In this document: positions 24,484-64,000 of the stretch, one piece after another
Layout of the letters: every line of letters starts with the position of its first letter
How positions within the stretch are numbered: the stretch's first letter is position 1
NCBI RefSeq assembly: GCF_000226095.1
Contig: NC_016476.1
Location: 2,976,001-3,040,000 of the forward strand
Direction: 5' to 3'
From: Thermothelomyces thermophilus ATCC 42464
Taxonomy: Eukaryota; Ascomycota; Sordariomycetes; Sordariales; Chaetomiaceae
DNA length: 64,000 nucleotides
Program-made: the position numbers and the translations under genes
The notes under the pieces: generated by a model
The model's database searches: none
The model's input: only the letters and a program-made list of their open reading frames with translations
What the model was told of the DNA's origin: nothing

Positions 24484-25710
24484 GAACAAAGGCCGCAAAC
24501 TACCTCGCCAGCCGGACGGCTCGAGCTGGCCTCGCAGGCTTTCGCGTCGGCGCTCGCCCTGTGCGACGCCCACCCGGCCGTCTATTGTACCGAGAGCTCG
24601 GATGGCCCCATCCTCCCCAAGTCGCGGTTCTTCTACGGTCGGGTGCTGCTGCGTCGGGGCAGGAAGCGGGAACTCGCGCTGAAACAGTTCAATCCTCGGC
24701 CGGTGTTCGTGCCTGGCGTCGGGGTGTCGTGACGCCGTGCATGGACGTGTGCAAAGAGCAGTCGGGGGAACATTGCGGATGTCGGCGCGAGATGGTCGAG
24801 GCCGGCGCGGACGTGACTATCCTCTGCGCCAACGGGTACATCGCTCTTGAGCAGGCCATCTTCAGCGGCACCGCAGGGCGTACGCAGAGGCACTGGCTGC
24901 GGACACTGAGAAGAGCGCTTTGTCTGGTCGTCTTAAGTGATTTCGACATATACCGACTTCAAGCAGTTCGGCCGCCTACCGCGGCCCAGAGATGGGCTGG
25001 TTCGGACCTTTCAGCTAGAGAAGCCAGGAGAGGAAAACGAACTGGGCGTTCTCATCTTCTCTTCCTACCGCTGGCTCAACTAGGACCGAAGCCTCAACAC
25101 GCCCGACGATCCCGCGCGCACGCAATGCTGACAAAAAATATGCGCAACAGAGATGTACCTAGGGCGAAAGCCAGCTGTCGAGACGGACAAGCTGTGTATT
25201 TGGATGGTACATTTGTCCAAGACGAATCAGAGAGAAGAGTATCAAGGAAAGATTGGAGGTAACAAGCAGAACGAAATCAAACCTTTGATTATGGTGGTCT
25301 TGCTGACTTCTTCCACCTTCTACTCAGGACTTTGCCTGCACCGCGAAACCAAGACAACCCGGGCACCGGCGTGTCGGGCCTCCCTTTGATGATAATCCAG
25401 TGTGACGCTATGATTAGCCTGGTGGACGAGAAGTACTACGAGCGGGCTTGGTGCTACGCCGAGGCTGTGATGATCAGCGGGCTGGACGTCTCCTCGAAAC
25501 GCCAGAGTGCCCTTCGATGGTTTTGAGGACATGCATGCGGGCGCGCTTGCTCTGAGTGCTGCGGCTGCTGGTAGCACCGGGATGGGTGGTTATCAAGCCA
25601 GCGCGACCGGGGAGTGGACTCTGGAGAAGGCGCGCGACTTGGTGATTAAGATGAATGACAAGAAGCTGATGCACGAGCAAGACTAGCCCAAGGCTGCGGT
25701 ATTTAGCGGT
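24484..25710 (+). pseudogene. Broken ankyrin/TIR-like fungal protein gene
   Basis: Recognisable pieces of one protein family lie in order but in different frames. First comes a SRFFYGRVLLRRGRKRELAL-type stretch, then an ankyrin-like MVEAGADVTILCANGYIALE, then ELGVLIFSSYRWLN, TEMYLGRKPAVETDKLCIWM, CDAMISLVDEKYYERAWCYA and GEWTLEKARDLVIKMNDKKL. The later blocks resemble the TIR-like cytoplasmic domain found in some fungal ankyrin proteins (FISYRWL, a DKLCIWMD-type strand, YYERAWC). The gene is broken in several places and looks like an old relic rather than an active gene. The family call rests on remembered motif patterns. Confidence 0.6.
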
Positions 25711-33300: not shown

Positions 33301-34507
33301 GAGCCTGGAGATATGGCCGCAGGTTTACGTGTTTTACTGCGTATTCATTCAATGAAACGGCCCCCGGGAGAGTAACCTTGTTATTTGCCTTAGCTCAGCC
33401 CATCCAGCTTTCTCCGCTCCCAACGGCTAATTAGGTAGTCCCAGTATATCCCAAAAGACAATTGTTGAACTTGGAAGCGCGTCATGGTTGCCATGTCAAA
33501 TGATAGGTATTCTGTTAGGGGATGATCGAGCAAGCAAGTCGTTCAGTGTCAAGCACACTACCAAGTATGGCTTCCCCTCCCTGTCTGTTGTGTGTGGAAC
33601 CAGACACGCAGCACCACGGCAACAGATACAGTACAATTCATGAGAGTGGAGATGCTCATACTCTAGAATTGCAAAGGTGTGCGGAGTAATTACATAATAG
33701 TACTCGCAGCCGGGAGAAGGGGATACCCCTGGAATCGAAAAGGTTCTGGAATCGGGTTGAGGTTGAGGTGTTAGGCGTGGAGGGCAAGGGTAAGGAGTAA
33801 GATCGGGTCCTGGTTAGGGAACATGAACGTACTAAGAGGGAACACGTCAATTCGATCTTCAGACAGGGGGCATGCGGCTTTTTTTTTTGCATGGTATGTT
33901 CAACGTTACGACATGTGTCGAAGTTTTTTTTGAAACCCCGACATATCAACAACCCACTAGGTGCCTACCTAGTCTAGGTAACTAGCAGGGTATATCTCTT
34001 TCCCCATGATGAGAGCAAGTAAAAGAGATCTCCGCTGAAAATCTTACCTAAAGTGCTTGAATAATCCAAGTTCTGGCATTCGAGATACCGATCTCAGAGC
34101 ATCGTGTTATTCTACAGGCTGTTTTTCTCCACAGCACATCGAGTGATTGTTAGGCAACTCTATCACGCCTGGAGTCAGAGTATACTTGAATTCTGAAAAC
34201 TTTGGTTTTGCGTGGGATTTGTGAACCGGTAGCAGAGCCTGATGAGGCCGTCGGGTTTCCTGACGCGAAGAACATTCCTGCCATCCAATACCGTCGGTCG
34301 GTGAACATATACCATCTACGCTCTAATACACAGGATGCTGTGCGGTACTGAGACAAGTAGGCGTAGGACACAACTCTTCTTGTCCGGCGTTTGGTAGCTC
34401 GCTCGCCGTATGGTGGAGTCGCGTGTCGGTCAATGAGTCTGGACCTCGTCGCGTTCGACGACTGTCAAGTCGGTGTGTGGCTCACATCTAGTACGCCGCA
34501 CTAATCC

Positions 34508-34663
34508 GTACAGAGTAATCCGTACTATATTGGCATGCAGGTCGATTTGGAGCGGGCCATTTTTGCACAATAGCACATGGTTGACCCCGGATCGCAGCGG
34601 AGTGTGCGCGTTCTTCGCAGGAAAAGGGGGTGTAATTGCCTGGTACAGAGAGTAATCCGTACT
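34508..34663. repeat. Direct repeat pair
   Basis: GTACAGAGTAATCCGTACT at 34508-34526 recurs at 34643-34663 with two extra bases (an additional AG). The copies start 135 bases apart. They could be flanks of a small insertion, or two instances of a common intergenic motif. Confidence 0.5.
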
Positions 34664-35559
34664 CAAACCCTCGTCTCACGTCGAAATCCTTCAAAAGTTG
34701 TGCGGGGTTCATCCCTCGAAATTGGACCCACCCAACCCCAACTCCTCGCATCGCTGAGAGGACAAGGTCCAATGGAAAGGGAGGTTGGGGAAAGGATTTT
34801 ACTGAAACCCGACAATCTGCCGGGCATGTGACTAGAAGGAGAAGAGGATTCCCCAGTACATCCGCCCAGCATCGGTTCTTGGCAAGTGCGATGCCCGTTT
34901 CTTCACCGAATCCACCTCAAATGGTGGGTGAGGAGCAGAGGGGCGGCTCCAGAGAGGGGAATTTTCCAAATGCGGGGAAGAGACCCGGGGGAGCTCACTC
35001 AGCACTGGAGAAAAAAAAAATATCTGGGGTGGTGGTGGGGTTTGAGCTGGGGTACAAACACACCGTACGTAGCTCAGTACGAATACTGTAGCATGCAAAC
35101 GGCGTCTCCAGTCTGCGCAGGCGGGGGATTCCTGTCAACTTGCGAAACGGCTTCCCCGAGCCACCCACAGCCCGCTCTCGAAACATGCAGCACCAGGAAC
35201 CAGGCACGGATCAAAGTACGTATGTCGTACCCGAGCTAAAGGGCTTCTCTTCTCCTTGTCGCCGCTCTTGGGTTTTCTCTTGATAATCGGCGTCCGATCG
35301 GCCACTAAGGTGTAAATGTGCCCCGACCTTGCAAGGGCTGCGGCAGAACGTCGGCAATCCAGAGAACAGCCTCGATTTCATCGGACCGATATCCCCCCGC
35401 AACCCCAGACCCCGCGACCCCCGGAGCTCGCTGGAGCTCGCGTGAGCGTTTGAGCGGCAGGCTTGCTGAGACGTCAGCCAAGCCAAGGCCAAGAGTGCGG
35501 CACCGAGTGCCAATGCGGCGCGGCAACAGTCTCTGCCGTGCCGGTGTGGGATACAACAC

Positions 35560-35571
35560 TAGTGTACACTA
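35560..35571. repeat. Palindrome TAGTGTACACTA
   Basis: A perfect 12-bp palindrome inside a longer run of CACTAGT and GTGTAC words. The same 12-mer forms the core of the palindrome at 36117-36130. Confidence 0.5.
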
Positions 35572-36116
35572 CACTAGTCTAGCGTGTCGTCAAGTGTACT
35601 AGTAAGGGTCCGGGGTTTCCTGAAAGGTGTGCAGAACGGGCAATCGTGGCGCGTGAAACAACAAAAGACTGACAGGCGATGCAAACGACCGTTGGAACTA
35701 GTCTCGGAAAGATAAAAAAAACAACAACATAAGCGGACTTGCCAGTCCAGACAAACGCAACACTAACGATCGGCGGAGCTAGCGCCATCCACAGTAGAGT
35801 TAGCGTACGGATTACTCATCTGTTCTCCGTATAATAAGCTCAAACAGGTATCAAGAGAGCTCCACAGAACAGCCGAGACAGATCCGCAGCCGCGTGCACG
35901 ATATCGAGCAGGCTCAGCAGGCCCTGCTGGCAGGGTAACGGTGGTGGAGTGTACAGTCCAGCATTGTGCGGTCCAAGCGGGGGCAACAGGGGCCAACCAC
36001 TTTTTGGCTGAAGCCCTCGGACTTCCAAGAGCTTGCCTGCCGGACTATCGGAAAACGGCACAGGAACCTTGCATGGTTCGATGGCGCACGCTAGCGTGCC
36101 GGGATGTGGTGCGGTC

Positions 36117-36130
36117 GTAGTGTACACTAC
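36117..36130. repeat. Palindrome GTAGTGTACACTAC
   Basis: A perfect 14-bp palindrome about 475 bases upstream of the sugar-transporter ATG. It shares its 12-bp core with 35560-35571. Confidence 0.5.
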
Positions 36131-36603
36131 ACAACTGCGTACCTTGATTCGCCCCCGGACCCAGTGGCCAGGACCCCGAATTTGAACCTCTGCCAGGCTA
36201 TGCTGCACCATTGGCGAGCTGTCGATCACTTTCATCTCCTGCCTGTTGCGGGGAGTTTGTGTGGGGCGGCCTTATGGCAAGACACAGCTCGCTATGTTGT
36301 TGACGAGTCGACGGGGCAGGCCACACCCACGCCACACGCGGCATGGTTGCACCGCACCTCAGCGCCATGCATGGCGACAGCGGCCGACTGAGGTGGAATA
36401 ACTAGGGTGCCGGGCCCAGCATTTTTTTTGCCCGGCTCCTTGGTTCTTGTCATTCTCGCCCTCTTGTCTCTTGTCTCATCATCATCTTCCGCTCCGGCGT
36501 CCCCGGTGAACGCTCTCCCGACAAGTCAAGCGAAGCGACACAGATCTCGGGCTTGCCCTTTTCACCCGCCAAAGAAGAAGAGGCAGCCTCCTTTCCCGCA
36601 GCC

Positions 36604-38881
36604 ATGGCCGACAGCGGGAGCTCAGATAGCATCCGGCAGGGCAACGAGCAACCGTACGTGCCGGCTGCTCTGACCCATTTTCCTCCCGTCCTCGGAACGA
36701 GACCACGGCTAACACGACGGCCTCTTTGCCCTCCAACAGCAAGGGTGTTGCTGGAACCTCGCTCGAGAAGGGCTTCTCGCACACCGAACATGTTAACCTC
36801 AACGCCAATCTCGAGGCCAGGTGAGTTATATGATTGATAATTTAGACCATGGTGAGCCGAGGTGTGTGTATTAGCAGTTTCTCACTAACGCGTGCCCCTT
36901 CCCCCTCCCCGCGTTCAGGATCAAGAATCCCTTAGAAGGCATCCCTCGCGATGAGCTCATGAGCCGGGTCCATATTTTCGCCGAGGAGAAGGGCCTAACG
37001 GAGCATATTGAGTTGCTGCGCAAGGGCGCCCTGGTGGCCCAGGACCCCGAGAACTTTGAAAACATCGATGGCGACGAGGCCCTGACCGAGGAGGAGAAAA
37101 GCGCCCTCCGCAAGGAGGTCGAACACAAGTGGCGCCTCCCTGCCAGGCTCTTCCTCACCATCATCACCTGTTCAATTGGTGCTGCCGTCCAGGGATGGGA
37201 TCAGACCGGCACCAACGGCGCCAACATCTTCTTCCCGGAAGTCTACGGCATCGGTAGCGACAGTACGCACGACACCATCCTGGTCGGCCTCCTGAACGCC
37301 GGTCCCTACATTGGCAGCGCCTTCCTCGGCTGCTGGCTGTCCGATCCCATCAACAACTTGTTTGGTCGTCGCGGCGTCATCTTCATCTCGGCTCACTTCT
37401 GCATCTGGCCCGTCATAGGCTCCGCTTTCTGCCATACTTGGCCGCAGCAACTGGCTTGCCGGCTTCTCATGGGCATAGGAATGGGCGTCAAGGCGTCCAC
37501 CGTGCCCATCTACGCCGCAGAGAACTCGCCAGCCCTCATTCGCGGTGCCCTTGTCATGTCTTGGCGTGAGTTTCTCTTCCTTCCTGAGCTGGGATATTTC
37601 ATAAACGCCGGGTCACGCTAACCAGAACGATCCAGAGATGTGGACTGCCTTCGGCATTTTCCTCGGAACCGCGATCAACCTCGCCGTCTGGAACACGGGC
37701 AAAATCAACTGGCGGCTGATGCTGGGTATGATGAGACCTGCCCCCCATGTTCTCTTTAATGAAAGATTGCTAACATGCCATCCATCTGCCCAGGCGCCCC
37801 TTTCATCCCCGCTGTCCCTCTCCTCTGCCTGATCTACCTGTGCCCGGAGTCGCCTCGCTGGTACATGAAGAAGAATCGGTATGCAGAGGCCTGGAAGTCC
37901 ATGGCGAAGCTCCGCCACCACCCGATCCAGGTCGCGCGCGACATCTTCTACATCCACTCTCAGCTCGAGATCGAGTTCCAACTCCTCCACGGCAGCAGCT
38001 ACTTCAAGCGCTTCGTCGAGCTGTTCACCGTCCCCCGCGTGCGTCGCGCTACCCTGGCCGCCTTCACCGTCATGATTGCCCAGCAGATGTGCGGCATCAA
38101 CATCATCGCCTTCTACTCGACCACCGTCTTCAAGGAGAACGGGTCGAGCGATTTCCAGTCCCTGCTCGCCTCCTTCGGCTTCGGCCTGATCAACTGGCTC
38201 TTCGCCTTCCCTGCCTTCTGGACCATCGACACCTTCGGCCGCAGGTCCCTGCTGCTCTTCACCTTCCCCAACATGGCCTGGACCCTGCTCGCCGCCGGCC
38301 TGTCCACCCTCCTGCCCGAGGGCTCGACCCAGCGCACGGCCGTCGTCGCCCTGTTCGTCTACCTCTTCGCCATGTTCTACTCGCCCGGCGAAGGCCCCGT
38401 CCCCTTCGCCTACAGCGCGGAGGTGTTCCCCCTGTCGCACAGAGAGATCGGCATGGGCTTCGCCGTCGCCACCTGCCTGTTCTGGGCCTCCGTGCTGGGC
38501 ATAACCTTCCCCTTCCTGCTCAAGAAGGCGGGCGTCGTGGGCGCCTTTGGCGTCTACGCCGGCTTCAACGTCGTTGCCCTGCTCATGATCTTCTTCTTCG
38601 TCCCCGAGACCAAGCAGCGCACCCTCGAGGAGCTCGACTACGTCTTTTCCGTCCCTACCCGCAAGTTCGCCAAGTACCAGGTGACTGAGGCCCTGCCGTG
38701 GTTCATCAAGCGGTGGGTGTTTTGGCAGCGCAAGGCCGAGCTCAAGCCCCTGTACCAGTTTGACCATGCCAAGAAGGACGAGGGGGAAAAGGCGCAGGTG
38801 CGGGCGCAGTCGGGCTTGCTGGACGCTGAGGACAAGAAGGCCGATTTGGCGGTCGAGAACAAGAAGCTGGAAGCCCAGTAG
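36604..38881 (+). CDS. MFS sugar/polyol transporter (SP family)
   Basis: Twelve-helix plasma-membrane transporter of the sugar porter family. Five exons are inferred: 36604-36653, 36740-36820, 36919-37565, 37636-37725 and 37794-38881, for 651 residues. A cytosolic N-terminus of about 110 residues ([40 protein letters not shown]) precedes the first helix [18 protein letters not shown]. Family motifs are clear: NLFGRRG after helix 2, [17 protein letters not shown] before the central loop, [14 protein letters not shown] in helix 7, [10 protein letters not shown], and [13 protein letters not shown] after helix 12. The C-terminal tail is Lys/Glu-rich. The extended N-terminus places it in a filamentous-fungal subgroup whose substrate I cannot name from sequence. 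Hexose, polyol or inositol are all possible. Confidence 0.92.
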
Positions 38882-40580: not shown

Positions 40581-41616
40581 TCACAAGTGACAGTCCTGCG
40601 AACTGTTTACCACAGCGCCGAGCCTGGTCCAAATCCCTTCAATCCCCATGTCCTCACGGCCGCTATGTCGGGGATGTATGTCAATATTGGCGACCAGAAG
40701 GGAGACAAAGGCGCCAACCAAGAGGCACTTACTCATTTTTGAACTTGATCAACGGTTTCAGTTTCCCCCGCAGCAGTGTCGGGGTTACGAAAGACGACAC
40801 TGCGCGTCTAATTAAAGGGGTACGTGGCAAGTCGAGTACTACAGTCAGCTCACACAGCCCAAGCAATCACTCCGTCCCCCCCCCTTTTCCAGAACAGTAG
40901 CAAAAACGAAAGAAAGAAAGAAAGAGAAAGAGAGGCAAGAAAAAAGAGAGGTTATCACTTACCAGCCCGAGGATCAGGTGTATGCCGGAAGGCGCGATGT
41001 TCATCTTCCCGGTCGGTTGATGGCCTTCGATTAATCTCGCAATGTTGCGCCCAGCAATCACGGCCTGCATCATTCCAGGTTGCGCGGCCTTGTGGGCACC
41101 TGAGTCGGCGATATCACCGACGGCAAAGAGATGTGGATACCGCGGGTCCTGGAACTGCATCGTCGGCAGGACGCGGACGAACCCGTTGGCCGGGTTGACC
41201 ACTTCGGACCCGAGCCCGGCGAGAAACTGGTTGTTGGGCGTCTGGCCGCTCGCCTGGATGACAAAGTCGGCCGGCAGCACCCTCACGTTCTGCAGCCGGA
41301 CCTCGGCCGGGACCCGGCTCCCGCCGCCGCTGCCGCCGCCGCCGACGACGATGGATCCATCCACCGACCGGCAGCCAATGTGTTAACCGTCCGCTGGCCG
41401 TAAACTCACTCGGTGGGTTGCTGGAAGGAGCTTGGCAAGCTCTCTGATCGTACTCTGGTTTTCGAAGCAAAGATGTAAGTAATCAATACCTATTTCAGCG
41501 ACTTGCACGCTCCAGGGTTTGGAGGATGCATGAAAAAGGGGTCAGGGGCGGCTTACCTTGCCAACATATGAACGTCCAACGACTACTACGTTTCGGAGGG
41601 CCGCAGAAGCTATCAT
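40581..41616 (-). pseudogene. AMID-type FAD/NAD oxidoreductase gene with internal deletion
   Basis: On the minus strand the start of an AIF/AMID-family gene is recognisable: 41557-41616 codes MIASAALRNVVVVGRSYVGK. After an intron with good borders comes TIRELAKLLPATHRV. Intact relatives continue from there through about 200 residues of FAD- and NAD-binding sequence, but here the next family-like sequence, under 70 bases on, is already the C-terminal part: VRLQNVRVLPADFVIQASGQ, FAVGDIADSGAHKAAQPGMM and AGRNIARLIEGHQP. Further exons with RNPDTAAGETE and REDMGIEGIWTRLG follow, ending at 40581. The gene has lost its middle and cannot make a normal enzyme. The Gly-rich nucleotide motif reads VVGRSYVG where relatives have a GGSYVG-like sequence. 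Intact family members act as NAD(P)H:quinone-type oxidoreductases. Confidence 0.7.
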
Positions 41617-42619: not shown

Positions 42620-44070
42620 TTAAGTCCTCAGGTACGCACACACGGCCTTCCCCCATCTAACACACCCTTTGTACACCCACATGCCCGGGGCATTGCCAGT
42701 TTTCAACCCTTCGATGGCGTCGGCCAGCTGCGGCCCGAGTCCGTCAGCTTTGATCTCGTCGAGGGTATACAGATACGTCTTGAAGCTGAACAGTATCGCC
42801 TGCGTCTCGGGCAACCGGGTCAGAGTTTGCAGCTCCACCCGGAACCTAGCCTTCTCGACGTCGATCTCTTCATCTTCCTTGACGTCCTCGCCCACATGAA
42901 CGTGGTTTCCGCTCGGTGCGTAAAGGTTTGGATGAGTTTGGACGGCCCACTGATCAGTCACGCCCGGCCGTGTCAGTCAGGCACGACGAAGAAGAATTCG
43001 TGAGACGATGAAGAAGCAAACATAGAAAACAAGATCGATCAGAAACGAAACAGACCACCAAAACCAAAAAACTAATGCCAGACGACGATGCAATATGTGG
43101 AGGTTTAAATTAGGTTTAAAAGAGGGGGCGGGGAAGAGACATACGTTCATTCTCTTTACGCTCTTGCCCACCTCCAACCGGGCAAAGTACCTCTCCATAC
43201 TCGCTCCAATCTTCGAATACGCGGGCACTGGAGAGTGAATCTCGGCCAGCCGCTTCCCCAGCTTCTCGGACGGATCAAACCCGGACGGGTGACAGCAGAC
43301 GAACGCCACGGCCCTGTGCTCGCCGCCGTCTGGTTCGCGCAGGAGCAAGAACATGTCGTCTTCGACCGTCTCCCCCAGAGCTCGGAGCATCGTGGATGCT
43401 TCAGAAGGCGGAGGAACCAGGGGTAGGCTTCGGCCTGTGACTTTGTTACGGAAGACAACCTCGGACGGGCCGGAAGAGGGGCGGACGAGGCTGAACATGG
43501 TTGGGTAGCGACGTGGTAGGTAGGTGCCGAGGAGGTACGAGTACAGTTCCCGAACTGCTGTGTAGCCGGATGGAATAGCACCCATTACCGCGGACTGGCG
43601 CTCATCTATGAGCTTGCGGCGTGACATTACTCGGTCGTGGTAGTTTCTGTCCATGACGATGAGATCGGCAGGGGTGCTGTTCTGAAGTGCTGTGAGGTTT
43701 TATATCGTATTAGTCTTCCAGTACTTAATACCAACTCCCGCTTAAGTCTCGCATCAGTTCCCGTTCTGAACCTACCCATTGTGATATGATACGTTGGCTT
43801 GATCGGCCTCAGCTTCAACGGCGGTGTGGCGTCCCAGACGAAGTCGTCCAGGGGTTCGATTCTCGGCTCCCAGCGGACAGACGCCTTGCTCTCTTCTCGT
43901 CCCGCTCCATCTTTGGCCGAGCTTGATCCCATCACCTCAACAACATCCCGGCTGCCCGCACGCGAAGAAGATATCGGTCGTTGACGAGGAAGAAGTCGCC
44001 GAAGGCGACCAGCAATTGTTGCCACAGTCAGTGACACAAAGAACAACAGCAGGACAGTGAGAGATGTCAT
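42620..44070 (-). CDS. DUF3445 protein (heme-dependent oxidative N-demethylase-like)
   Basis: Three exons on the minus strand (43776-44070, 43145-43689 and 42620-42949) give 389 residues. The protein has an N-terminal hydrophobic anchor (MTSLTVLLLFFVSLTVATIA), a Ser-rich linker, and then the DUF3445/HODM-like domain. This starts at PTYHITMALQNSTPADLIVM, a junction made by splicing, and goes on with MDRNYHDRVMSRRKLIDER, AFVCCHPSGFDPSEKLGKRL, IHSPVPAYSKIGASMERYFA, NWAVQTHPNLYAPSGNHVH and RVELQTLTRLPETQAILFSF. Bacterial relatives are heme-dependent oxidative N-demethylase subunits. The fungal proteins are single-pass and their substrate is unknown to me. The C-terminus AVCAYLRT is where relatives end. 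Confidence 0.85.
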
Positions 44071-53557: not shown

Positions 53558-54626
53558 GTCGGTTGGGGGTGGTGGTGGTGGTGGAGGATGGTTTTTCGTC
53601 TATTGGATATCCTCTAAGCGGGTCTTAGACGTGCCTGCGACGGCGGCAAGGCAGGTTGGGGGGCGGGGGGAGGGGCGGTACTAGTAGGGAATGTCAAAGG
53701 GTTTTCGGCTTTTGGTTGCCCGAACCGCCCACGGGAGGGTGAAAGAGATGTTGGTTCGCATCTTGCGCAGTATGCATGCACATTACCGCGCACTGGTGAC
53801 TTGCGGCATACGTGTATTGAATCCGAAACCGGATGGAGCAAACCGGATCGCTTGTGTAACTACCTCTCCTCGAGTTCCGAGCAGCGGCGGCTTCCCTCGG
53901 ATAATGGACCCCTGTTCACTGATAATCTGATAAGATGAGTCTGCAGCACTGTGGGTCTCGTGTGGATGCGCAGGAGCGGGGGTTTGGCGGGCGTGGGCCC
54001 TGAAACTGTGTACGACCCGTTCCGGTTGGTTCACTGGAGAAATGAACCAAAAAATGGCAACCAAAGCTCGAAACGAAGAGAAAGCGGTAGGTCGGTTCGA
54101 ACGGTTGCTCCTCCGATCCCGGCCGCGTCCTAGCATGTCAGAAGACGGGACGAAGGATTCGTTCCACAGCTCGGCGTTCTTGGCCCTCTGGCAACACACA
54201 CGAAAGAGCCAGGGGAAGGAAAGCGTACTCGTCACAACCCACACTAACAATTTCCACCCTTGGCACGAGCAATCGAACGAAAACACAGCTGAGAGCCAAC
54301 TGAGGTGGGGTAGTCGTTCGCTCGTCAGAAGCCCTCCCCTGGGATCGGTTCCAGGGTGGGCTGGAATGAAACGGTCCGGGATGCTTTCTATGAACAAATT
54401 CGAAAATGGCTGTATGTAGTACCGACCCCCCGGATCCTCCTTCTTTTTTTTCCTCTCCCATCGCCTCAAAGTCCCCTATACCTCTTAGATGCCGCTTCGC
54501 CATCGTGCTCTTGGGCACCTTTGGAGCACCTTACGGCGTAGACCCCGCCGAGCACTATCCTGGTCGTGTCAACCCCAGCAGCAGCCCGTTGTCAAGTTGC
54601 AACCATTCTCAGGCTCATCAGTCGCC
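53558..54626. other. Intergenic region with an iron-GATA-type site
   Basis: 1.07 kb without a supported gene, between the dehydrogenase and the AIFM2-like gene. The ATCTGATAA site at 53925-53933 is the notable element. Confidence 0.4.
53925..53933 (+). promoter_or_regulatory. ATCTGATAA GATA-factor site
   Basis: Exact match to ATCWGATAA, the extended GATA site preferred by fungal iron repressors of the SreA/Sre1/Urbs1 type. It lies about 690 bases upstream of the AIFM2-like ATG. A shared role with the sites between the siderophore genes is inference. Confidence 0.45.
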
Positions 54627-56196
54627 ATGGGCTCACTTTCCGGTCTCCAAATGCCGCAACCGTTCAGGGTTCTCATAGCCGGCGGCTCGTACGGCGGTCT
54701 CTCGGCCGCGCTCAACCTCTATGACCTCTGCCGCGGCCTGCCTCCCCGGTGCGGCCCAGCGCCGGCCGAGGGTGAGGACCTGCCGGAGACGCCGCAGTTT
54801 GCCGTCGACATAACCGTCGTCGACGAGCGGGATGGCTTCTGTGAGGCTACCAGTAGCGCCTCCCTACCCTTGCTGTGCTAATGATTTCCAGACCACCTCA
54901 TCGGCTCGCCCCTGGCGCTGGCGTCGGAAGCGTTCACCGAAAAGTGTTGGGTCAAGTATGACGACATCCCCGGGTTGCAGTCGCCCAACATCCACGTCGT
55001 TCAGGGCAGCGTCAAGTCGGTTGACCCGGCGCGCAAGGTGGCTACCTACCTCCCCCACGGCAGCACTGCCGAGCCTCAGGAGGTGCGGTACGACTACTTC
55101 GTCGCAGCCTCCGGGCTGAGGAGGGCCTGGCCTGTCGTGCCTCAATCGCTGCGCAGGAAGCAATACCTGTTCGAGGCTGGCGACCACATCCGTGCTGCCA
55201 CAGCTGCGAGACATGGAGTTGTCATCGTCGGTGGCGGTGAGTCACTCGTCTCTCTTTTTCGGAGCAGCAGCATAAACAAGGAGGACATCATGACTGATCA
55301 ACCCTAGGCGCTGTCGGCATCGAAATGGCCGCCGAGCTCAAGCTCGTCCACCCGCATCTCAACGTCACACTGGTCCATTCGCGCGACAAGTTGCTCTCCT
55401 CGGAAGCGCTGCCCGACGAGGTCAAGGACCGCAGCCTGGAGCTGCTGCGGGAAGCCGGCGTCGACGTGCTCATGTCGCACCGGCTCGACCGCACAGAGGA
55501 GGTCAAGGACGACAGCGGAAACAGCTGCCTCAGGGTGCACTTCACCAACGGCCACAGCATGCTGGCCGACCAGGTATCCCTCGCCGTGTCGAGGAGCGTT
55601 CCCACGACGACGTACCTCCCGAACGACGTGCTCGACGAGCAGGGCTATGTCAAGGTCCAAGCCAGGTATGTAACGCTCCCCTTTCTGCTGCTCCCTCCAA
55701 GTCAACCCTAACACTCGCACGCAGCCTTGCGTTCCCCGAGCAATCGCCCAACTCGGCCTTCCACTTCGCTGTCGGTGACTTGGCCAAGTGGTCCGGCATC
55801 AAGCGCTGCGGCGCCGCCATGCACATGGGCTACTACGCGGCCCACAACATCCACCGGCACATGCAGTTGCAGACGCAGACAGAGGGTCAGGCTGCTCAGG
55901 CGACTGACAAAGGGGGGATCCCGAAGCTGCTGGAGCTGGACGAGATTCCGCCCATGATCGGGCTGGCGGTGGGCAAGAAAGCCGTGGCCTACTGGCCTGA
56001 GGGCGGGATGATGTCGGGTGAAGATGTGATGAAGACCTTCTTTGGTGACGATCTCGGTTTTGCGAGTGAGTCGCCCCTGTTGAATCCACTTTTTTTCTCT
56101 TCCTCCTTTAGCCTTTTTTCCTTGAGGCATAAGTGTACTGACACGGATGCAGTCTGTTGGAATCATCTTCGACTCGGGGGCGATAAGGTCCAGTGA
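54627..56196 (+). CDS. AIFM2/AMID-like FAD-dependent oxidoreductase
   Basis: Pyridine nucleotide-disulfide oxidoreductase of the AMID/FSP1 group, predicted to move electrons from NAD(P)H through FAD to a quinone or other acceptor. Five exons are inferred: 54627-54840, 54892-55236, 55308-55665, 55725-56065 and 56153-56196, giving 433 residues. The FAD-binding motif is VLIAGGSYGGLSAALNLYDL. The spliced DERDGFYHLIGSPLALASEA follows. The NAD-binding motif VVIVGGGAVGIEMAAELK spans an intron. The second FAD contact is FAVGDLAKWSGIKRCGAAMH. The last exon is only 44 bases, and the intron before it (87 bases) has no stop in frame. The protein ends RLGGDKVQ. It converges with the SidF-like gene, 256 bases between stops. 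A broken relative lies at 40581-41616. Confidence 0.88.
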
Positions 56197-56452: not shown

Positions 56453-57927
56453 TTACAACTTGGGCACCAAACCGACCCCGGTACCGCCCATGACCTTCTC
56501 GTTATCGTCCAAGGGGCACAGCTGGAAGAAGCGCTCGCGGGAGCAGCTCACGAGGGCGGACCGCTTGTCGGGCAGGTCGATGAACTTGTGAAGCCCAAAC
56601 CCGTGGATGAGGTCGTACATGAGGACCGACGTGTTGGTATACTTGGGCTCGCCGACCACGCTGGCGGTGCGGGGGTCGTCGAGGAAGAGGTAGTGCATCA
56701 GGCTCGACCACCAGGCACTGACGCGGTGCGGGCCGCGGTACCGCACGTCGCCGACGAGGCTGTGCCGGCCTCGGTCGTAGTCGCCCGCCGCGTAGTAGGA
56801 ACCGATGCGGTCCTCCTGGGTTCGCAGAAAACCGCGTCCCATGCGCATCAGCATTACGCAAAGTCTCGAACTGAGGAGAGAGAAAGAGAAGGAGGAGAGA
56901 AAAGAGAGCAACTCACCTTTGCCCAGTAGACTTCAAAGTAGGCAAAAAAGGTGTCGTCGAACCGCGCAAGCACGGCTAGCCGGTGCGGGTCCTCGTGCAC
57001 CCTGGCCAGATACTGCCGGTGCTGCTCGCGGGTGCCCGTCACGTTCCAGCCCTGCGACACGCGCGGGTCGTTCTGCCAGGCGTGGAACAGCTCCACGTGT
57101 GCCGGATCGGCGGCGTCGAGCGCCACCATGCTGAAGGTCTCGCGCAGGTGCGGGATGTAGCGGCTGTAGATGACGGACCCGGGCTGGGGCTTGGCCCGTC
57201 GCCGGGGGTGCCAGGCCGAGAGGGCGGCGGCGGCGGCACCGGACCCCGGAGCGGAGGCGGTCATGGTGTACTCGGGGGGCGGGAGTGGGTAGGACGCGAA
57301 GTCCGGGTCCTGCGACTCGGGCGCCCAGACGGGGCGCGGGCCGAAGGGGGAGGCGGCGCCTTGCCAGAAGGCGCTCCGCGAGACGAGGAGCTCGGTCGTG
57401 CCGGGGCCGGACTGGGCAGCGTCCTGGGGGGAAGGAAGCGGCGGCGGCGGCGGCGGCGGGTGGGCGGTGGCCAGGCCGAGCGTCTGGAGTTGCCGGGCTA
57501 GGCGGGCCGCGCCGGAGCCCTGGGCGTCGAGGCGGAACGCCTCCTCCCGCGGACGCAGGGTGAAGACGGCATACGTGATGAGCCAGAGCTGACCGACCGT
57601 AGGGGCCTGGGCTCCCGTCCAGCTCACTGCCACGGCAGGACTGCGTCTGGCTCTCGCCCATGGCGTGTTGTTTGACTCGCTTGGACGGTCGCTCGATTTG
57701 AGGTCTTGGGGTTCGGAGAAGAAGACGGAGGCGTTGTGAAGGGGGCTGGGGAGCGGCTTGTTGTCGCTCGATTGGATCTCGCCAGGAGTGAGCTGGAAAC
57801 GATTGGAGTCGCCCGTGTCTCGGACGACGAAGTAGGGTGTCTGGTAGGGGTGTGGCAGCTTCAGGATCGGGTCTGACGAAGCTGCGTAGTCGGCAAAACG
57901 CCGTGGTGTTCTTGTTGGCGAGGACAT
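56453..57927 (-). CDS. SidF/SidL-type hydroxyornithine acyltransferase (siderophore biosynthesis)
   Basis: GNAT-fold transacylase of the fungal siderophore family. SidF transfers anhydromevalonyl, and SidL acetyl, to N5-hydroxyornithine. Two exons on the minus strand (56917-57927 and 56453-56815) give 457 residues. The N-terminal half is a variable domain with a poly-Pro tract. The C-terminal GNAT domain reads [80 protein letters not shown] and [20 protein letters not shown]. The protein ends in PKL, a PTS1-like tripeptide. Because SidF works in peroxisomes and SidL in the cytosol, and because the divergent neighbour is a SidI-like ligase, SidF is the better call, though both share this fold. 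Its promoter carries GATA iron-repressor-type sites. Confidence 0.82.
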
Positions 57928-58376
57928 CCCAATGTGTGTATAAGGGTATGTGTTGTATGTTATGTGTATGATTGTGTGAGTGCTCGATTGGGCGGACAGG
58001 AAGATGCGTCCAAAACTTAGACAGGAATCACAAGGTCACGAAAGCAGCAACAATACCAAGGAGATATGATCGCTCATCACATGCACGACCAAAAAAAAAA
58101 AGGGAAAAAAAAAAGGCAGGCCGTTGACCCAAACAAATTGCATCCAAGATGTGGGTATTCAATCAAACACCTACATCTGCATCCACTTTGGCAATGACCA
58201 GACGAGAGAGAGAACCGGGGTCCTGGATGCTGGGTCACGTTTCGCGGCAGAAACCGGTTTCACAGCTTCTGTGGGTTATTTCGTTTTCGCGAGACACCGC
58301 GTGTTCTTCCCGTGGGATGTGGATGATTAACCAATGAGCGACGGGCTAGGGTCCGAGAGGAGTCGCCCGGGTTCGG

Positions 58377-58419
58377 ATCTGATAACTTTACTCGAACGCC
58401 AAGAAAGCGGATCAGATAA
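58377..58419 (+). promoter_or_regulatory. Paired ATCWGATAA sites
   Basis: ATCTGATAA at 58377-58385 and ATCAGATAA at 58411-58419, with starts 34 bases apart on the same strand. This fits the extended GATA site of fungal iron repressors. The pair lies about 450 bases upstream of the SidF-like ATG. Confidence 0.6.
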
Positions 58420-58825
58420 TTCTGCGTAGCACCTCCTTGGCGCCCGATCTCGGAGGTCTAGATTCTGGCGTGGAGTTGTTCATTGCCGTCCCGATTCATT
58501 GCCCGCACAGCCATCAAAAGGCTACGGACGGGTATCCCGAGAAAAAGGACAGGTGAAAGAAAGAGAAGAGAAGAGAAAGATAAACATTACATATGGTAGC
58601 AGAGATCACTCACCTACCGTCAAATCAATACAGTATCAGCTCCGACCGAACCAACGATCCCAGGTCAATGGATGAATAACACGGGTAAATGTGCCATCTG
58701 CCCTCGGAGAGTGCAGAAACAGCACAAGAGGAGAGACACTACCCGACACTAGCGAGAGGTAGCTGCTGTGTACTACCACAGTCGTCGCTTCCCTAGCCAG
58801 AAATTGAGGCTTGGCATGATTCATC

Positions 58826-58834
58826 TTATCAGAT
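58826..58834 (-). promoter_or_regulatory. ATCTGATAA GATA-factor site
   Basis: TTATCAGAT on the plus strand, ATCTGATAA on the minus. It lies near the middle of the divergent promoter. Confidence 0.55.
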
Positions 58835-59280
58835 CCCGAGGACTTCGGCTCTCCAGTGGCCCCCTCTGCGGCATTTTACCAGGGCAAGGGCGGCCCACCA
58901 CCATCGCACCACTCTGTGGCACTTTCGGTTAACAGATGGCGGAGGAGCAGCGACCTTGCCCCGCCAAGTGTGCCCGCAAAAAGAGAAGAAAAAAATCTGA
59001 TCCGTTTTCTGGCTCCATGAGTGGAACCGCTTTTCATGACAACCGAGAATGCCCATCGGTCACGCCTTTCAGTACCTACTACACTAGGCCGAGCCAGCGG
59101 TGCCTCCGGGTTGTATCCGCGTGTCCTGTGTGGTAACCGAAGAGCGAGCGATGCAGCAGACCGGGGGCCCAGCTATGATGCACCACCGTCCCTCCTCGGG
59201 CACATTCTGGGCCAATCCGCAAGGTTCTCTTGGAATAGCCGAGAGGCTTCTGCTGGTGCGGGGCCCTGCTTGAATGCATC

Positions 59281-59289
59281 TTATCAGAT
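59281..59289 (-). promoter_or_regulatory. ATCTGATAA GATA-factor site
   Basis: TTATCAGAT on the plus strand, about 430 bases upstream of the SidI-like ATG. Its immediate context CATCTTATCAGAT is the same as at 58826, suggesting local duplication or a longer preferred site. Confidence 0.55.
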
Positions 59290-59719
59290 TAGATGGAGCA
59301 AGGTAACCCTACACTAGTGTACGCGAAGTATTCCGTACCTACCCACGAATCCACACATTCGGCTCCGTACATACAAGCAGTGGAGCGGGCTGAACTCTGG
59401 AGCTCGGGTGCCTGTGTGGGTAGCGTGGCTCCCTCGCCAGTCGGTCTGGTACCGTCGCGTCCCGTCATGGTTTCTTTTTCTTTTTTTTTTTCTGCCGGTT
59501 CGCCCCGGCTATGCGGTTCCTAAACCCTCGCCCAACGCACTCGCTCAGTTCCTGTCCGTAGGTAGGCACCTAGGACATTGCCCCAAACCAACAGCTCCCT
59601 CTCTCCTTTGTGTTGTAACGGCTCAAGAAACTGCAAGTCGAAACATCCAACCATACCTACCTCGAGCGCCGTCAGAACTCAGAACAGAGGCCCGACATTT
59701 TCAAAGCGGTCGGTAGGCC

Positions 59720-61698
59720 ATGTCTGTTCAGACCCCAGCTCACCATCCGCCCGAGGACGGCCTTGTCCTCCCTCAGCCCCAGAAACCGTCGCTCCTCTTT
59801 GGCCCGACAGACCCGCCTCTGGTAGACCTGACACTCGGGGAGCTGCTGAACCTGCAATGCCTTCACCACGGCACGCGAGAAGGGATCGTGATCCCGTGGA
59901 CGGGGGCGAGATGGACCTACAACGAGCTTAACCACCACAGCCGGCTGCTGGCGGCCGCCCTGTTGGAGATGGGCATCGGCGTTGGCGACAGGGTGGGCAT
60001 CATGGCAGGCAATTGCGAACAATACGCCGCCGTGTTCTTCGCCGCGACAAGGATAGGCGCCATCCTGGTGATCCTCAACAACACGTATACCCCGACTGAG
60101 GCGCAGTACGGCCTTGACTTTTCCGGTATGATTTTTTTGTTTTTTATTGACGCACCATCCCCTAGTTTTTTTCTTTTCCCTAATTTGTTGTTTTTCTCTT
60201 CATTTTTGCTTCCCATACCGTGCCTTAGCCTAACACTCGCTGTCGCACAGAGTGCAAAGTGTTCTTCACCACGAAGAGGATAGGGCGGCTCGATCAAGGG
60301 CCGCTCCTGGACCAGCTCGCGGCGCGGGCGACGGGCCCCAAAGTCGTGATTCTGCGGGGCGACTCGGAGGGGTACACCAGCTACGGGGACTTGCTGTCGC
60401 GAGGCTCCCGCGTCGACCCGGACCGGCTCCATCATGCCGAGATGAAGGTGGTTCCGCACCTCGTATGCAACCTCCAGTTCACCAGCGGCACCACCGGCCT
60501 GCCCAAGGCGGCCATGCTAACTCACCAGTACGTCCTGTCCTGGCCGTGCTCCCGCGTCTCTGTCTCGTTGTGTTTAAACGCCTGTGTGTGTGGTTATGTA
60601 TATTTGCTAACACGTTATTCTCCCGTGTGTTCCAGCAACATCGTAAACAATGCCCGCTTCATTGGCGACCGGATGCGGCTAACCCCCGCCGACGTGCTGT
60701 GCTGCCCGCCGCCGCTCTTCCACTGCTTCGGCCTGGTGCTCGGGCTGCTCGCGGTGCTGACGCACGGGGCCAAGATCGTGTACCCGGCCGAGGTGTTCGA
60801 CGCGCGGGCGACGCTGGAGGCGATCGTGAAGGAGCAATGCACGGCGGCGCACGGGGTGCCGGCCATGTTCGACAGCCTGCTGGCCCTCCCGGAGGCGCGG
60901 CGCCTACGGGCGGAGGACCTGCGCCTGCGCACCGGCATCATCGCGGGCGCGCCGGTGCCGCGCCACCTGATGGAGCAGCTCGTCTCGCGGCTGGGCATGG
61001 CCGAGTTCACTTCGAGCTACGGGCTGACGGAGGCATCGCCGACCTGCTTCAACGCCTTCACCGACGACCCCATCAGCCTGCGCCTGACCACGGTCGGCAC
61101 CCTGATGCCGCACGCCATGGCCAAGATCGTGGACCGCGACGGCCAGATCGTGCCCGTCGGCACCCGCGGCGAGCTGTGCATCGGCGGCTACCAGCTGCAG
61201 GCCGGCTACTGGAACAACTCGGAGAAGACCAACGAGGTCATGGTGCGCGACGAGAGCGGGGTCCTGTGGCTGCACACGGGCGACGAGGCCGTCTTTGACG
61301 AGCGCGGCTACTGCTCCATCACCGGCCGCTTCAAGGACATCATCATCCGCGGGGGCGAGAACATCTACCCGCTCGAGATCGAGGAGCGCCTGGTGGCCCA
61401 CCCGGCCATCGCCACCGCCGTCGTCGTCGGCCTCAAGGACGCCCACTACGGCGAGGTCGTCGGCGCCTTCCTGGGCCTGGATCCCGCCCACGGGCACCGG
61501 CCGCGGCCGGGGGCCGAGGAGGTCAGGGAATGGGTGCGCCGCAAGCTGGGCAAGCACAAGGCGCCCACCCACGTCTTCTGGCTCGGCGTCGACGGCGTGC
61601 CCAGCACGGTCCCCCTGACGGGGAGCGGTAAGGTGCGCAAGTTCGAGATGGCCCGGCTGGGGAACAAGCTCCTCGAGGAGGCAAAGGCGAAGCTCTAA
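59720..61698 (+). CDS. Acyl-CoA ligase, SidI-like (mevalonyl-CoA ligase candidate)
   Basis: Adenylate-forming acyl-CoA synthetase. In Aspergillus, SidI activates mevalonate for the fusarinine/TAFC branch, upstream of the hydratase SidH and transacylase SidF. Three exons (59720-60125, 60251-60527 and 60636-61698) give 581 residues. Motifs in order: the AMP-binding loop TSGTTGLPKAAM, VLCCPPPLFHCFGLVLGLLA, SSYGLTEASPTCF, LHTGDEAVFDERGY, GRFKDIIIRGGENIYPLEIE and the C-terminal catalytic lysine region PLTGSGKVRKFEM. The protein ends in AKL, a standard PTS1, so it is predicted to be peroxisomal. I see no N-terminal PTS2. Related fatty-acid ligases (ACSF2 group) share these motifs, so the SidI assignment rests on family resemblance, the divergent SidF-like neighbour and the shared GATA-site promoter. 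Confidence 0.78.
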
Positions 61699-62214
61699 GA
61701 AAGAGAGAGAGAGGAGGGAGAAAGGGAGCGGGGAGAAAAGAAGCGATGGCTGATTATTAATTACCTGCCATATATTCATGAGTCGGTTCAATTGATTTTG
61801 GGAAACTCGAGGAATAAAGGGCTAAGTAGCGAGGGTTTAATTAACGTACAGACAAGTATCTGTCAATTCAAGATTTTTGATAAATGTAGCATAAAGCTGC
61901 TTGATAGAGGGCGCCGATAATATGCGCGCTCCTAGACGTCGTCGGGGCTCAATGGGATTGTAATTTACTCTACGTATGTACTGTGACATATATACATACA
62001 ATTACAGTTCCGTACGTGAAGTGTGTGTTTGCGGTGGGTGCTAACACCGCAGGGTGCCGGTATCTGTCAGGCCGAATGAGGTATTGCGAGTTTCGAGAAT
62101 TAATAACGAGAAAGGGGCATCTGCTGTTGATGTTGCGTCGAAACTTCTTTCCATGCGACACTAAGCGCTAATCCTACAAGAATGGATGCTACCAATTGCC
62201 AGATAACAACTGCT
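61699..62214. other. AT-rich intergenic region
   Basis: About 0.5 kb after the ligase stop with TTAATTAA- and TATATACATA-like sequence. No supported gene. Confidence 0.4.
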
Positions 62215-62315
62215 GGTCGACTGGTGTAGTGGTTATCACGTCTCGTTCACAATAGGTGAATACAGCTGGAGTAATTCCACCGAGAAGGTGCCAGGTTCGA
62301 TCCCTGGGTCGATCA
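62215..62315 (+). tRNA. tRNA-Val(CAC) with a 28-nt intron
   Basis: The acceptor stem GGTCGAC pairs with GTCGATC (one G-U pair), and the discriminator is A at 62315. The D-arm contains TAGTGGTTAT. Anticodon stem TCTCG pairs with CGAGA, with anticodon CAC at 62248-62250. The T-arm CCAGG-TTCGATC-CCTGG pairs perfectly. An intron at 62252-62279, directly after the base 3' of the anticodon, contains GTG (62256-62258) that can pair with the anticodon as in known pre-tRNAs. The mature length is 73 before CCA addition. Confidence 0.9.
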
Positions 62316-62599
62316 TCTCTTTTTGGTTTTCCTTCTTGAAATAGCTGCTTTATTCTCCCCCGAGCCCCAATTTGTGCTCCTTCGTCAGATGCACGCTTAT
62401 TAGTATGTATAAACTTGAATTTGGGAGCTAGGCAGATCCTGTAGCGAGATTAATATGGGAAAGGGCTACTAATACTAATAATGCATTCTATTGCTGTAAA
62501 GATGCCTTCCTAGAATAGAGCTTGATGTAATTATGATAGCTAATTACAAGGCAGGTAGCTAGCATTTAATACTAGATAAATACTTTCCAATTTTATTTT
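62316..62599. other. Short AT-rich spacer
   Basis: 284 bases between the tRNA and the sulfatase stop. The stretch 62400-62580 is AT-rich with many TAAT words and could be a decayed repeat. No gene is seen. Confidence 0.35.
62320..62324 (+). terminator. RNA polymerase III terminator
   Basis: A run of five T starts four bases after the tRNA end, as expected for Pol III termination. Confidence 0.7.
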
Positions 62600-64000
62600 T
62601 CAAACCCATTCGCTCCATCTCGCCCCGTGCCGATACACCAGCCCGTCCGTCTCGAACTGGGGCCCCTCGGCATCTAGGAGGTAGCCCATCTCGCAGCGGG
62701 TGAAGCTGACCTTCTTCTGCTGCTGCTCGTAAAAGACGTCGAAGCGGGGGTTCAGGGCGTCGTGCAGGTTCTGGACGTTGCCGGCCGGGTGCAGGGCGTG
62801 CCACGGCCGGACACAGGTCTGCCCCTTGCACGACTTGAGCACAAACAGCAGCGAGTCCAGACGGGCAACAACCTTCTCGAACGGCACCCCCAGCAGGGTG
62901 GCGGGGGGCTTGGCCGAGTCGCGAAGGAGGTTGTTGAGCTGGTAGGGGTCCGTCTAATAATGAAAATAATAAACCCCGAAAGAGAGAGACGATTGAAAGT
63001 CAGCAGGCCAGCCAGCCATGCAAGAGTCTCAAGAATAGAAGAAAAGAAGAAAAGAAGGAGGTCAGGGTGCTCGTACCGTCAAGTCGTAGAGCTCGTGCTC
63101 GTTATTGCACCACACGGCATAATACAAGTTATACTCGTCGCCGATGACGCGCAGGGCCTTGTACGTGTTGTTGCGCAGCAGGCGCTCCTCGTGGCCGGGA
63201 AAGGCCCTGCCCTCGGACAGGGCGAAGCCCCAGAACTCGACGGTGACGTGCTCGTGGCGGGAGCGGGCGGCGGCGTCGATGGCCGGGCGGGAGAGAGGGA
63301 TGGCCTCGCCGTCGAAGCCGTAGTGGTCGCGGAGGCGGGCGGGGTCGACGCCGGCGAGGCGCAGGATGGTCGGGGCCAGGTCGACGTGGGCGGTCACGAG
63401 GCGGTCGGCGACGTGGGCCGGGGCGACGCCGGGCCCGCGCACGATGAGGGGCACGTTGATGTCCTCCTCGAAGCCGCACTCCTTGCCCGGCTGCAGGCGG
63501 TGCTGGCCGATGTGGAAGCCGTTGTCGGTCGTGTAGAAGAGGTACGTGTCGGCGAGCAGGCCGAGCTGGTCGAGCCGGCGCACCACGGCGTCGACCAGCT
63601 CGTCGACCGACTGCAGCACGCGCAGGCGCTGCCGGTAGAAGTGGTCGTTGAAGGCCACGTTGGCCGCCGTCTGCGGCGGCAGCTGACGCAGCCACCCGGC
63701 ACCCCATGTCGCCACCGCCGGCTCGGCCGGGTTGAAGTGCGGCGTGCGCGGCACCACGGCGTCGGCGAACAGGTGCGCGTGCCGCGCCGCGGGGATCGGC
63801 GGCGTGAAGGTCACCCGCGACTCGATGTCGTCGTAGTCCCCGTCCTCGTCCCAGCCCCCGTCCCCGTCCGGCGTCGGCGCCTGGGCCACGTTACTGTGCG
63901 GCGCGACGGGCGCGATGCCGAGGAAGAAGGGGCGCGGCGACTGCGAGGCCTCGTCCAGGAAGGAGAGGGCCTTCTGGGTCAGCACGTCCACCGAGTGCTG
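62600..64000 (-). CDS. Sulfatase, C-terminal part (gene runs off the window)
   Basis: Arylsulfatase/GlcNAc-6-sulfatase-type hydrolase. Two exons are visible on the minus strand (63077-64000, continuing past the window edge, and 62600-62953), joined as HELYDLT-TDPYQLNNLLRD. The visible chain includes PFFLGIAPVAPHSN, DTYLFYTTDNGFHIGQHRL (metal-binding DNG and His), GFEEDINVPLIVRGPGVA, VTAHVDLAPTILRLAGVD and RNNTYKALRVIGDEYNLYY. These are typical of the C-terminal half of the alkaline-phosphatase superfamily sulfatases. The formylglycine signature (CxPSR) should be upstream and is outside the window. The C-terminal domain with paired cysteines (SCKGQTCVRP) suggests a secreted enzyme. The signal peptide cannot be checked here. 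Confidence 0.88.

What the first reader, a model, noticed from the sequence alone, without database searches (positions are those of the whole stretch)
56453..61698. Divergent siderophore gene pair under a four-site iron-GATA promoter
The SidF-like transacylase and SidI-like ligase face away from each other across 1.8 kb holding four exact ATCWGATAA sites (58377, 58411, 58826, 59281). With four 9-mers counted over both strands, about one match is expected by chance in 64 kb at even composition. I noticed five, all within 53.9-59.3 kb, though my scan of the rest of the window was not exhaustive. ATCWGATAA is the known site of SreA/Sre1-type iron repressors. The simplest reading is a two-gene iron-repressed module for the anhydromevalonyl siderophore branch.
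Basis: partly seen in the sequence, partly recalled or inferred. Interest (0 to 1): 0.75.

Follow-up and report, generated by a model that had tools for sequence, protein, structure and literature searches.

The report
Iron-controlled fungal siderophore gene pair
Two fungal genes that make the special acid part of an iron-scavenging molecule sit back to back around four copies of the known iron-repressor binding site, which is an ordinary arrangement, but a neighbouring gene related to a human anti-ferroptosis enzyme may belong with them and also has such a site upstream.

Summary
The window holds exactly five ATCWGATAA sites (0.37 expected); four lie in the 1,792 bp between the two start codons, where none of 20,000 random versions held more than two. 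The left gene is a SidF-type transacylase: full-length match to Aspergillus fumigatus SidF (E 1.4e-124, 199 of 421 aligned residues identical), catalytic His present, PTS1 PKL. The right gene is an acyl-CoA ligase of the class that includes SidI, with PTS1 AKL as in Sordariomycete SidI. Published SidF and SidI accessions are consecutive in Neurospora crassa and Podospora anserina, so the pair is known; in Chaetomium globosum and Gibberella zeae they are not. Iron repression is inferred; the SidF/SidL and SidI/ACSF2 trees could not be run. New lead: the gene convergent with sidF is an AMID/FSP1-type NAD(P)H oxidoreductase, the fifth site lies 555-693 bp upstream of it, and AMID, SidF and SidI are three consecutive accessions in N. 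crassa and P. anserina. The fifth site shares a 13-base form, ATCTGATAAGATG, with two intergenic sites. No NRPS, SidH or siderophore transporter was seen among the scanned ORFs. A good instance of a known arrangement, with one testable lead.

The parts
56453..57927 (-). sidF-like gene: N5-hydroxyornithine:anhydromevalonyl-CoA transacylase, 457 aa, one intron (56816-56916), C-terminal PTS1 PKL, His355 and Glu393 of the GNAT domain
59720..61698 (+). sidI-like gene: acyl-CoA (mevalonyl-CoA) ligase, 581 aa, introns 60126-60250 and 60528-60635, AMP-binding plus C-terminal domain, C-terminal PTS1 AKL
57928..59719 (.). shared intergenic region between the two start codons, 1,792 bp, with four exact iron-GATA sites
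58377..58385 (+). ATCTGATAA site, 449 bp from sidF ATG, 1,334 bp from sidI ATG
58411..58419 (+). ATCAGATAA site, 483 bp from sidF ATG, 1,300 bp from sidI ATG
58822..58834 (-). ATCTGATAAGATG (core 58826-58834), midway: 898 bp from sidF ATG, 885 bp from sidI ATG
59277..59289 (-). ATCTGATAAGATG (core 59281-59289), 430 bp from sidI ATG, 1,353 bp from sidF ATG
53925..53937 (+). fifth site, ATCTGATAAGATG (core 53925-53933), 555/693 bp upstream of the two candidate AMID start codons
54489..56196 (+). AMID/FSP1-type NAD(P)H oxidoreductase gene, five exons (introns 54841-54891, 55237-55307, 55666-55724, 56066-56152), 479 aa from 54489 or 433 aa from ATG 54627; convergent with sidF. Its membership of the iron unit is a hypothesis

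Best explanation
This is the sidF-sidI pair of a fungus, probably a Sordariomycete. SidI joins mevalonate to CoA, SidH (not seen here) dehydrates it, and SidF moves the anhydromevalonyl group to N5-hydroxyornithine, giving the building block of coprogen- or fusarinine-type siderophores; the C-terminal PTS1 signals send both proteins to the peroxisome. The two genes diverge from one intergenic region in which an SreA/SRE/Sre1-type GATA repressor binds four RATCWGATAA sites when iron is plentiful and shuts both genes down. Shown here: the genes, their families, targeting tripeptides, conserved GNAT residues and the excess of exact sites. Inferred: substrates, repressor binding, co-repression, peroxisomal import.
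For: SidF: full-length hit to A. fumigatus SidF 7qf6, E 1.4e-124, both domains, 199 identical of 421 aligned query residues; N-terminal-domain construct 8kd8 at 4.7e-32. His355 and Glu393 are 38 apart, as are Sib3 His248/Glu286 and MbtK His130/Asp168 (PMC11424930, passages). SidI: AMP-binding 2.8e-88 and AMP-binding_C 1.3e-13; top NCBIfam match PRK12583, 504.6 bits, below its 832 cut-off. The AKL (SidI) and PKL (SidF) tripeptides equal those of P. anserina and M. oryzae in Table 1 of PMC3709128, whose text says Sordariomycete SidI has PTS1 in contrast to PTS2 elsewhere. Consecutive accessions of SidF and SidI in N. crassa (XP_959825/XP_959826), P. anserina (XP_001905331/XP_001905332) and Phaeosphaeria nodorum. 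Sites. ATCWGATAA averaged 5.4-fold more copies upstream of 49 putative SreA-regulated genes than in the whole genome (PMC2610380, passages); (G/A)ATC(T/A)GATAA is present in the promoters of the Histoplasma siderophore cluster and is said to be bound by Sre1 in vitro (PMC2275787, passages). sidF and sidI are induced in low iron in Scedosporium and Paracoccidioides (PMC5932178, passages; PMC4144954, passages).
Against: No expression or binding data for this organism. No SidL or SidI reference sequence was available, so paralogy was not tested by a tree. Gene order is not universal: in Table 1 the SidF and SidI accessions are far apart in C. globosum and G. zeae, where SidF is instead consecutive with SidH. 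No NRPS, SidH or siderophore transporter among the ORFs scanned (27 of the 33 in the list, plus 3 further ORFs; the pair itself); the window ends 2.3 kb past sidI. The middle site is 885-898 bp from both starts, near the edge of the 1 kb of upstream sequence used in the Histoplasma study. One-mismatch sites are not enriched. PTS1 alone does not separate SidI from peroxisomal fatty-acid ligases.
Confidence: 0.9

Rival explanations
1. The iron-regulated unit is a three-gene neighbourhood: AMID/FSP1-type oxidoreductase, sidF and sidI, with the fifth site serving the AMID gene. AMID would supply quinone reduction or membrane protection linked to iron status. (This extends the best explanation rather than replacing it.)
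For: AMID, SidF, SidI are consecutive accessions in N. crassa (XP_959824/5/6) and P. anserina (XP_001905330/1/2) and adjacent here. The fifth site has the same ATCTGATAAGATG form as sites 58822 and 59277; these three are the only exact copies in the window. GATG follows 3 of 5 exact sites and 0 of 80 other GATAA, Fisher p 1e-4.
Against: One site outside the pair is not improbable by itself (0.37 expected over the window). The extension was noticed after looking and rests on three sites; for GAT alone the contrast is weaker (3 of 5 against 3 of 80, p 0.002). AMID is described as a cell-death oxidoreductase; in N. [quoted passage not shown] Neighbour genes can stay together without shared control. 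AMID accessions were seen for two species only, and accession order is not a map: NcAIF is XP_959841 and NCU05850 while NcAMID is XP_959824 and NCU06061. The SidF-SidI link itself is absent by accession in C. globosum and G. zeae.
Confidence: 0.3
2. The GNAT is SidL-like (acetyl transfer for ferricrocin), not SidF.
For: SidF and SidL share the GNAT domain and the conserved His and Glu (PMC11424930, passages).
Against: Full-length match to SidF at 47%, the same value as reported for Scedosporium SidF against A. fumigatus SidF; PTS1 present, whereas SidL is described as cytosolic; partner is a ligase of the SidI class. No SidL sequence appeared among the 7 structures matched, so this hit cannot choose between them by itself.
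Confidence: 0.04
3. The ligase is an ordinary peroxisomal fatty-acid or other ACSF2-type ligase and the GATA sites serve only sidF.
For: Its matches among solved structures are general fatty-acyl, aryl and related CoA ligases and luciferases, and its top NCBIfam match is a fatty-acid CoA ligase family; PTS1 is common to such enzymes (recalled).
Against: [quoted passage not shown] site 59281 is 430 bp from sidI and 1,353 bp from sidF, and site 58826 is midway; SidI sits next to SidF by accession in two Sordariomycetes.
Confidence: 0.05

Closest known systems
sidF and sidI of Neurospora crassa and Podospora anserina
   Same: Same two enzymes, consecutive accessions, PTS1 on both; P. anserina has the same AKL and PKL tripeptides
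   Different: Orientation and promoter sites in those species were not seen here; N. crassa SidI ends SKL
Histoplasma SID4-SID1 and Paracoccidioides sidI-sidA divergent pairs
   Same: Acid-CoA ligase gene diverging from a siderophore gene over about 1.0 kb (1,036 and 1,005 bases), with the iron-GATA consensus reported in the clusters' promoters (passages)
   Different: The partner there is the ornithine monooxygenase, not SidF, and the pair lies inside a larger cluster with NRPS and transporter genes
Scedosporium apiospermum sidD cluster
   Same: sidF and sidI close together and down-regulated in iron excess (passages)
   Different: There with sidD, sidL, sitT and mir; by locus number the mir gene (CDS2804) lies between sidF (CDS2803) and sidI (CDS2805)
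Aspergillus fumigatus sidF and sidI
   Same: Same enzymes; sidF is in the SreA regulon (sidI is not named in that paper)
   Different: Far apart by locus name (AFUA_3G03400, AFUA_1G17190); SidI uses PTS2
N. crassa AMID (NCU06061) and vertebrate FSP1/AIFM2
   Same: Window FAD gene: five exons and 433 aa from ATG 54627, against five exons and 434 aa; best PDB hits are AIFM2/FSP1, E 4.2e-19

Membership tests
SidF (N5-hydroxyornithine anhydromevalonyl transacylase) | Two-domain protein alignable over nearly its full length to A. fumigatus SidF | tested here: met
   7qf6, residues 19-439 of 457 aligned, E 1.4e-124
SidF (N5-hydroxyornithine anhydromevalonyl transacylase) | GNAT catalytic His and partner Glu/Asp | tested here: met
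   His355, Glu393, 38 apart; reference residues from PMC11424930, passages; placed by spacing and context, not by an alignment with Sib3
SidF (N5-hydroxyornithine anhydromevalonyl transacylase) | C-terminal PTS1 | tested here: met
   ends PKL; Table 1 of PMC3709128
SidF (N5-hydroxyornithine anhydromevalonyl transacylase) | Groups with SidF rather than SidL in a tree | not testable with these tools
   no SidL or fungal SidF set reached; genome contigs gave 54 bacterial loci, viral contigs none
SidI (mevalonyl-CoA ligase) | ANL adenylating enzyme with both domains and core motifs | tested here: met
   PF00501 and PF13193; TSGTTGLPK and TGSGK read in the sequence (motif roles recalled)
SidI (mevalonyl-CoA ligase) | Peroxisomal signal, PTS1 in Sordariomycetes | tested here: met
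   ends AKL; Table 1 of PMC3709128
SidI (mevalonyl-CoA ligase) | Groups with SidI rather than fatty-acid ACSF2 ligases; acts on mevalonate | not testable with these tools
   no SidI among the 60 of 66 PDB matches shown
SreA/Sre1-type iron regulon | RATCWGATAA sites upstream above chance | tested here: met
SreA/Sre1-type iron regulon | Iron- and repressor-dependent expression | not testable with these tools
   no expression data
Siderophore gene cluster with NRPS and transporter | NRPS, SidH or siderophore transporter nearby | tested here: inconclusive
   none among the ORFs scanned; 3 of the 33 listed ORFs and all ORFs under 90 aa or failing the codon-bias filter were not scanned, apart from 3 added by hand; right flank only 2.3 kb

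The most novel reading that the evidence does not exclude
The fungal AMID gene, described as a cell-death oxidoreductase and related to the ferroptosis suppressor FSP1, is a linked member of the siderophore neighbourhood and of the iron-GATA regulon in at least part of the Sordariales, so that quinone reduction or membrane protection is switched together with iron uptake. The repressor there prefers an extended site, ATCTGATAAGATG.
Probability: 0.25. Interest if true: 0.55.

Novelty: new member of a known kind. Interest (0 to 1): 0.35.

Why it matters
The pair is one more clear case of divergent siderophore genes with clustered iron-GATA sites. The AMID link, if real, would join two lines of work that did not meet in the papers seen here: fungal AMID/AIF cell-death studies in Neurospora and Podospora, and fungal iron regulation. 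It would make an iron role for a fungal FSP1 relative directly testable in N. crassa, where amid mutants exist and the iron regulator sre has been isolated (reference seen).

Tried and rejected
Whole-genome count of the motif: no genome is held. Relatives for synteny or a tree: the search for related loci in genome contigs gave 54 bacterial GNAT relatives from 59 candidate stretches and no locus with a fungal title; viral contigs gave none (1 stretch, not confirmed). A tblastn of SidI against those 54 loci gave only weak general ligase matches (24-28% identity, 7 matches in 6 loci), so no sign of a bacterial sidF-sidI pair within the DNA held. Rfam on the whole window: no match at gathering score. 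ARAGORN without introns: no tRNA; with introns: one. HapX/CCAAT control: four CCAAT boxes in the intergenic region, one at the sidF start codon; not pursued. A search for N. crassa SRE and ATCTGATAA (15 of 72 papers listed) showed no paper with that 9-mer among those listed. Literature on a sidI/sidF head-to-head arrangement: searches (20 of 1,826 listed, mostly unrelated; one paper, PMC3709128) gave nothing specific. AMID-iron link: searches (12 of 22 listed; 10 of 421 listed) showed no title or abstract making it; a weak negative. The 12-mer ATCTGATAAGAT or its reverse complement was found in one zebrafish paper (listing only; motif logos in figures are not held). Structure prediction, fold search, RNA models and padloc/phrogs scans were not used. 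Considered and rejected: chance GATA sites, SidL identity, fatty-acid ligase identity (see rivals).
Full report
What was checked. The window has GC 0.567 and spliced genes; the seven introns modelled here (1 in sidF, 2 in sidI, 4 in the FAD gene) begin GT and end AG. The organism was not identified; the PTS1 pattern and gene order point to Sordariomycetes, perhaps Sordariales (inference). No genome is held for it.

The sites. Dinucleotide shuffles of the window give 0.37 on average and never five (0 of 100). For the 1,792 bp between the start codons, 20,000 first-order samples gave at most two sites and in 19,655 cases none; four are observed. All five fit RATCWGATAA, the form described for Histoplasma (PMC2275787, passages). 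GATAA as such is only mildly raised in the interval (5 against 2.4 expected), and one-mismatch sites are near chance (19 against 12.6), so the excess is specific to the exact extended site.

The sidF-like gene runs 57927 to 56453 on the minus strand with one intron and codes for 457 residues. Its best hit among solved structures is A. fumigatus SidF, 7qf6, E 1.4e-124, with 199 identities over query residues 19-439. Pfam gives Acetyltransf_8, 2.3e-50, and a sub-threshold DUF2868 match (25.5 bits, cut-off 26.8) of no clear meaning; NCBIfam gives nothing. His355 and Glu393 are 38 residues apart, as the essential His248 and conserved Glu286 are in S. pombe Sib3 (PMC11424930, passages; there Glu286 was dispensable). 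The protein ends PKL.

The sidI-like gene runs 59720 to 61698 with two introns and codes for 581 residues ending AKL. It has AMP-binding and AMP-binding_C domains; its top NCBIfam match is PRK12583, below that family's cut-off. Solved relatives are general acyl- and aryl-CoA ligases and luciferases, so the sequence alone says 'ligase of this class'; SidI is the specific reading because of partner, targeting tripeptide and published order.

Published context. Table 1 of PMC3709128 (section 6 read whole) lists SidI with PTS1 in its five Sordariomycetes, and AKL for SidI with PKL for SidF in P. anserina and M. oryzae, as here. In the same table the SidF and SidI accessions are consecutive in N. 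crassa and P. anserina, and in Phaeosphaeria nodorum; they are far apart in C. globosum and G. zeae, where SidF is consecutive with SidH, and for M. oryzae the accessions are of different series and cannot be compared. Divergent siderophore gene pairs with the iron-GATA consensus in their promoters are described for Histoplasma SID4-SID1 and Paracoccidioides sidI-sidA (passages). ATCWGATAA had on average 5.4-fold more copies upstream of 49 putative SreA-regulated genes than in the whole genome (PMC2610380, passages). In Scedosporium sidF and sidI are induced in iron starvation (PMC5932178, passages). The pair with its sites is therefore a further instance of a known arrangement.

What lies around it. 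Pfam was run on 27 of the 33 coding-like ORFs of at least 90 aa listed, plus three further ORF pieces and the two proteins of the pair, which cover three more of the 33; three of the 33 were not scanned. No NRPS, enoyl-CoA hydratase or siderophore transporter was found; the one MFS gene (36875-38878) matches the sugar-transporter family best. The right flank ends at 64000 inside a sulfatase gene, so a cluster further right is not excluded.

The neighbour. Convergent with sidF, with 256 bp between the stop codons, is a five-exon gene, 54489 or 54627 to 56196, whose best solved relatives are AIFM2/FSP1 (E 4.2e-19). N. crassa AMID, NCU06061, also has five exons and 434 residues (PMC3314617, passages); from the second ATG the window protein has 433, and a published N. 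crassa amid primer reads KRCGGAM in one frame, close to KRCGAAM here. NcAMID is XP_959824 and PaAMID1 is XP_001905330, directly before SidF and SidI in both species. Consecutive accessions suggest, but do not prove, adjacency; the numbers do not always follow locus order (NcAIF XP_959841 is NCU05850), and only these two species were compared. The fifth iron-GATA site lies 555 bp upstream of the first candidate start and 693 bp upstream of the second. It and sites 58822 and 59277 read ATCTGATAAGATG; GATG follows 3 of 5 exact sites and 0 of 80 other GATAA in the window (Fisher p 1e-4), GAT follows 3 of 5 and 3 of 80 (p 0.002). This extension was noticed after the fact and rests on three sites.

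Mechanism. Iron-replete: a GATA repressor of the SreA/SRE type holds both genes off through the shared sites. Iron-starved: repression is lifted, SidI and SidF enter the peroxisome by PTS1, and with SidH make the N5-anhydromevalonyl-N5-hydroxyornithine unit. The enzymatic roles follow from the named families; the control step is inferred from sites alone.

Judgement. The AMID link is the part worth a second look.

Noticed in passing
54489-56196 (+): AMID/FSP1-type NAD(P)H oxidoreductase gene convergent with sidF; accessions of AMID, SidF and SidI are consecutive in N. crassa and P. anserina.
   Followed up: partly
53925-53937, 58822-58834, 59277-59289: Three of the five sites share the 13-mer ATCTGATAAGATG; none of the 80 other GATAA counted in the window is followed by GATG.
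   Followed up: partly
62214-62317: tRNA-Val (CAC) with a 28-base intron between sidI and the sulfatase gene, found by ARAGORN only with introns allowed.
   Followed up: yes
62603-64000 (-): Sulfatase-family gene running off the window's end.
   Followed up: no
42623-43699 (-): Gene with haem-dependent oxidative N-demethylase alpha-like domain (HODM_asu-like), two ORF pieces.
   Followed up: no
40870-41382 (-): ORF with a weak Pyr_redox_2 match (1.5e-06), possibly a second FAD oxidoreductase gene in the window.
   Followed up: no
24730-36874: About 12 kb with only one ORF (31788-32057, no Pfam hit) in the filtered list of coding-like ORFs of 90 aa or more; gene-poor or fast-evolving stretch.
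   Followed up: no
L001-L054: Bacterial loci encode GNATs 36-51% identical (best segment) to the SidF C-terminal half, in some loci aligning from residue 137-176 on, so part of the N-terminal domain is shared too.
   Followed up: partly
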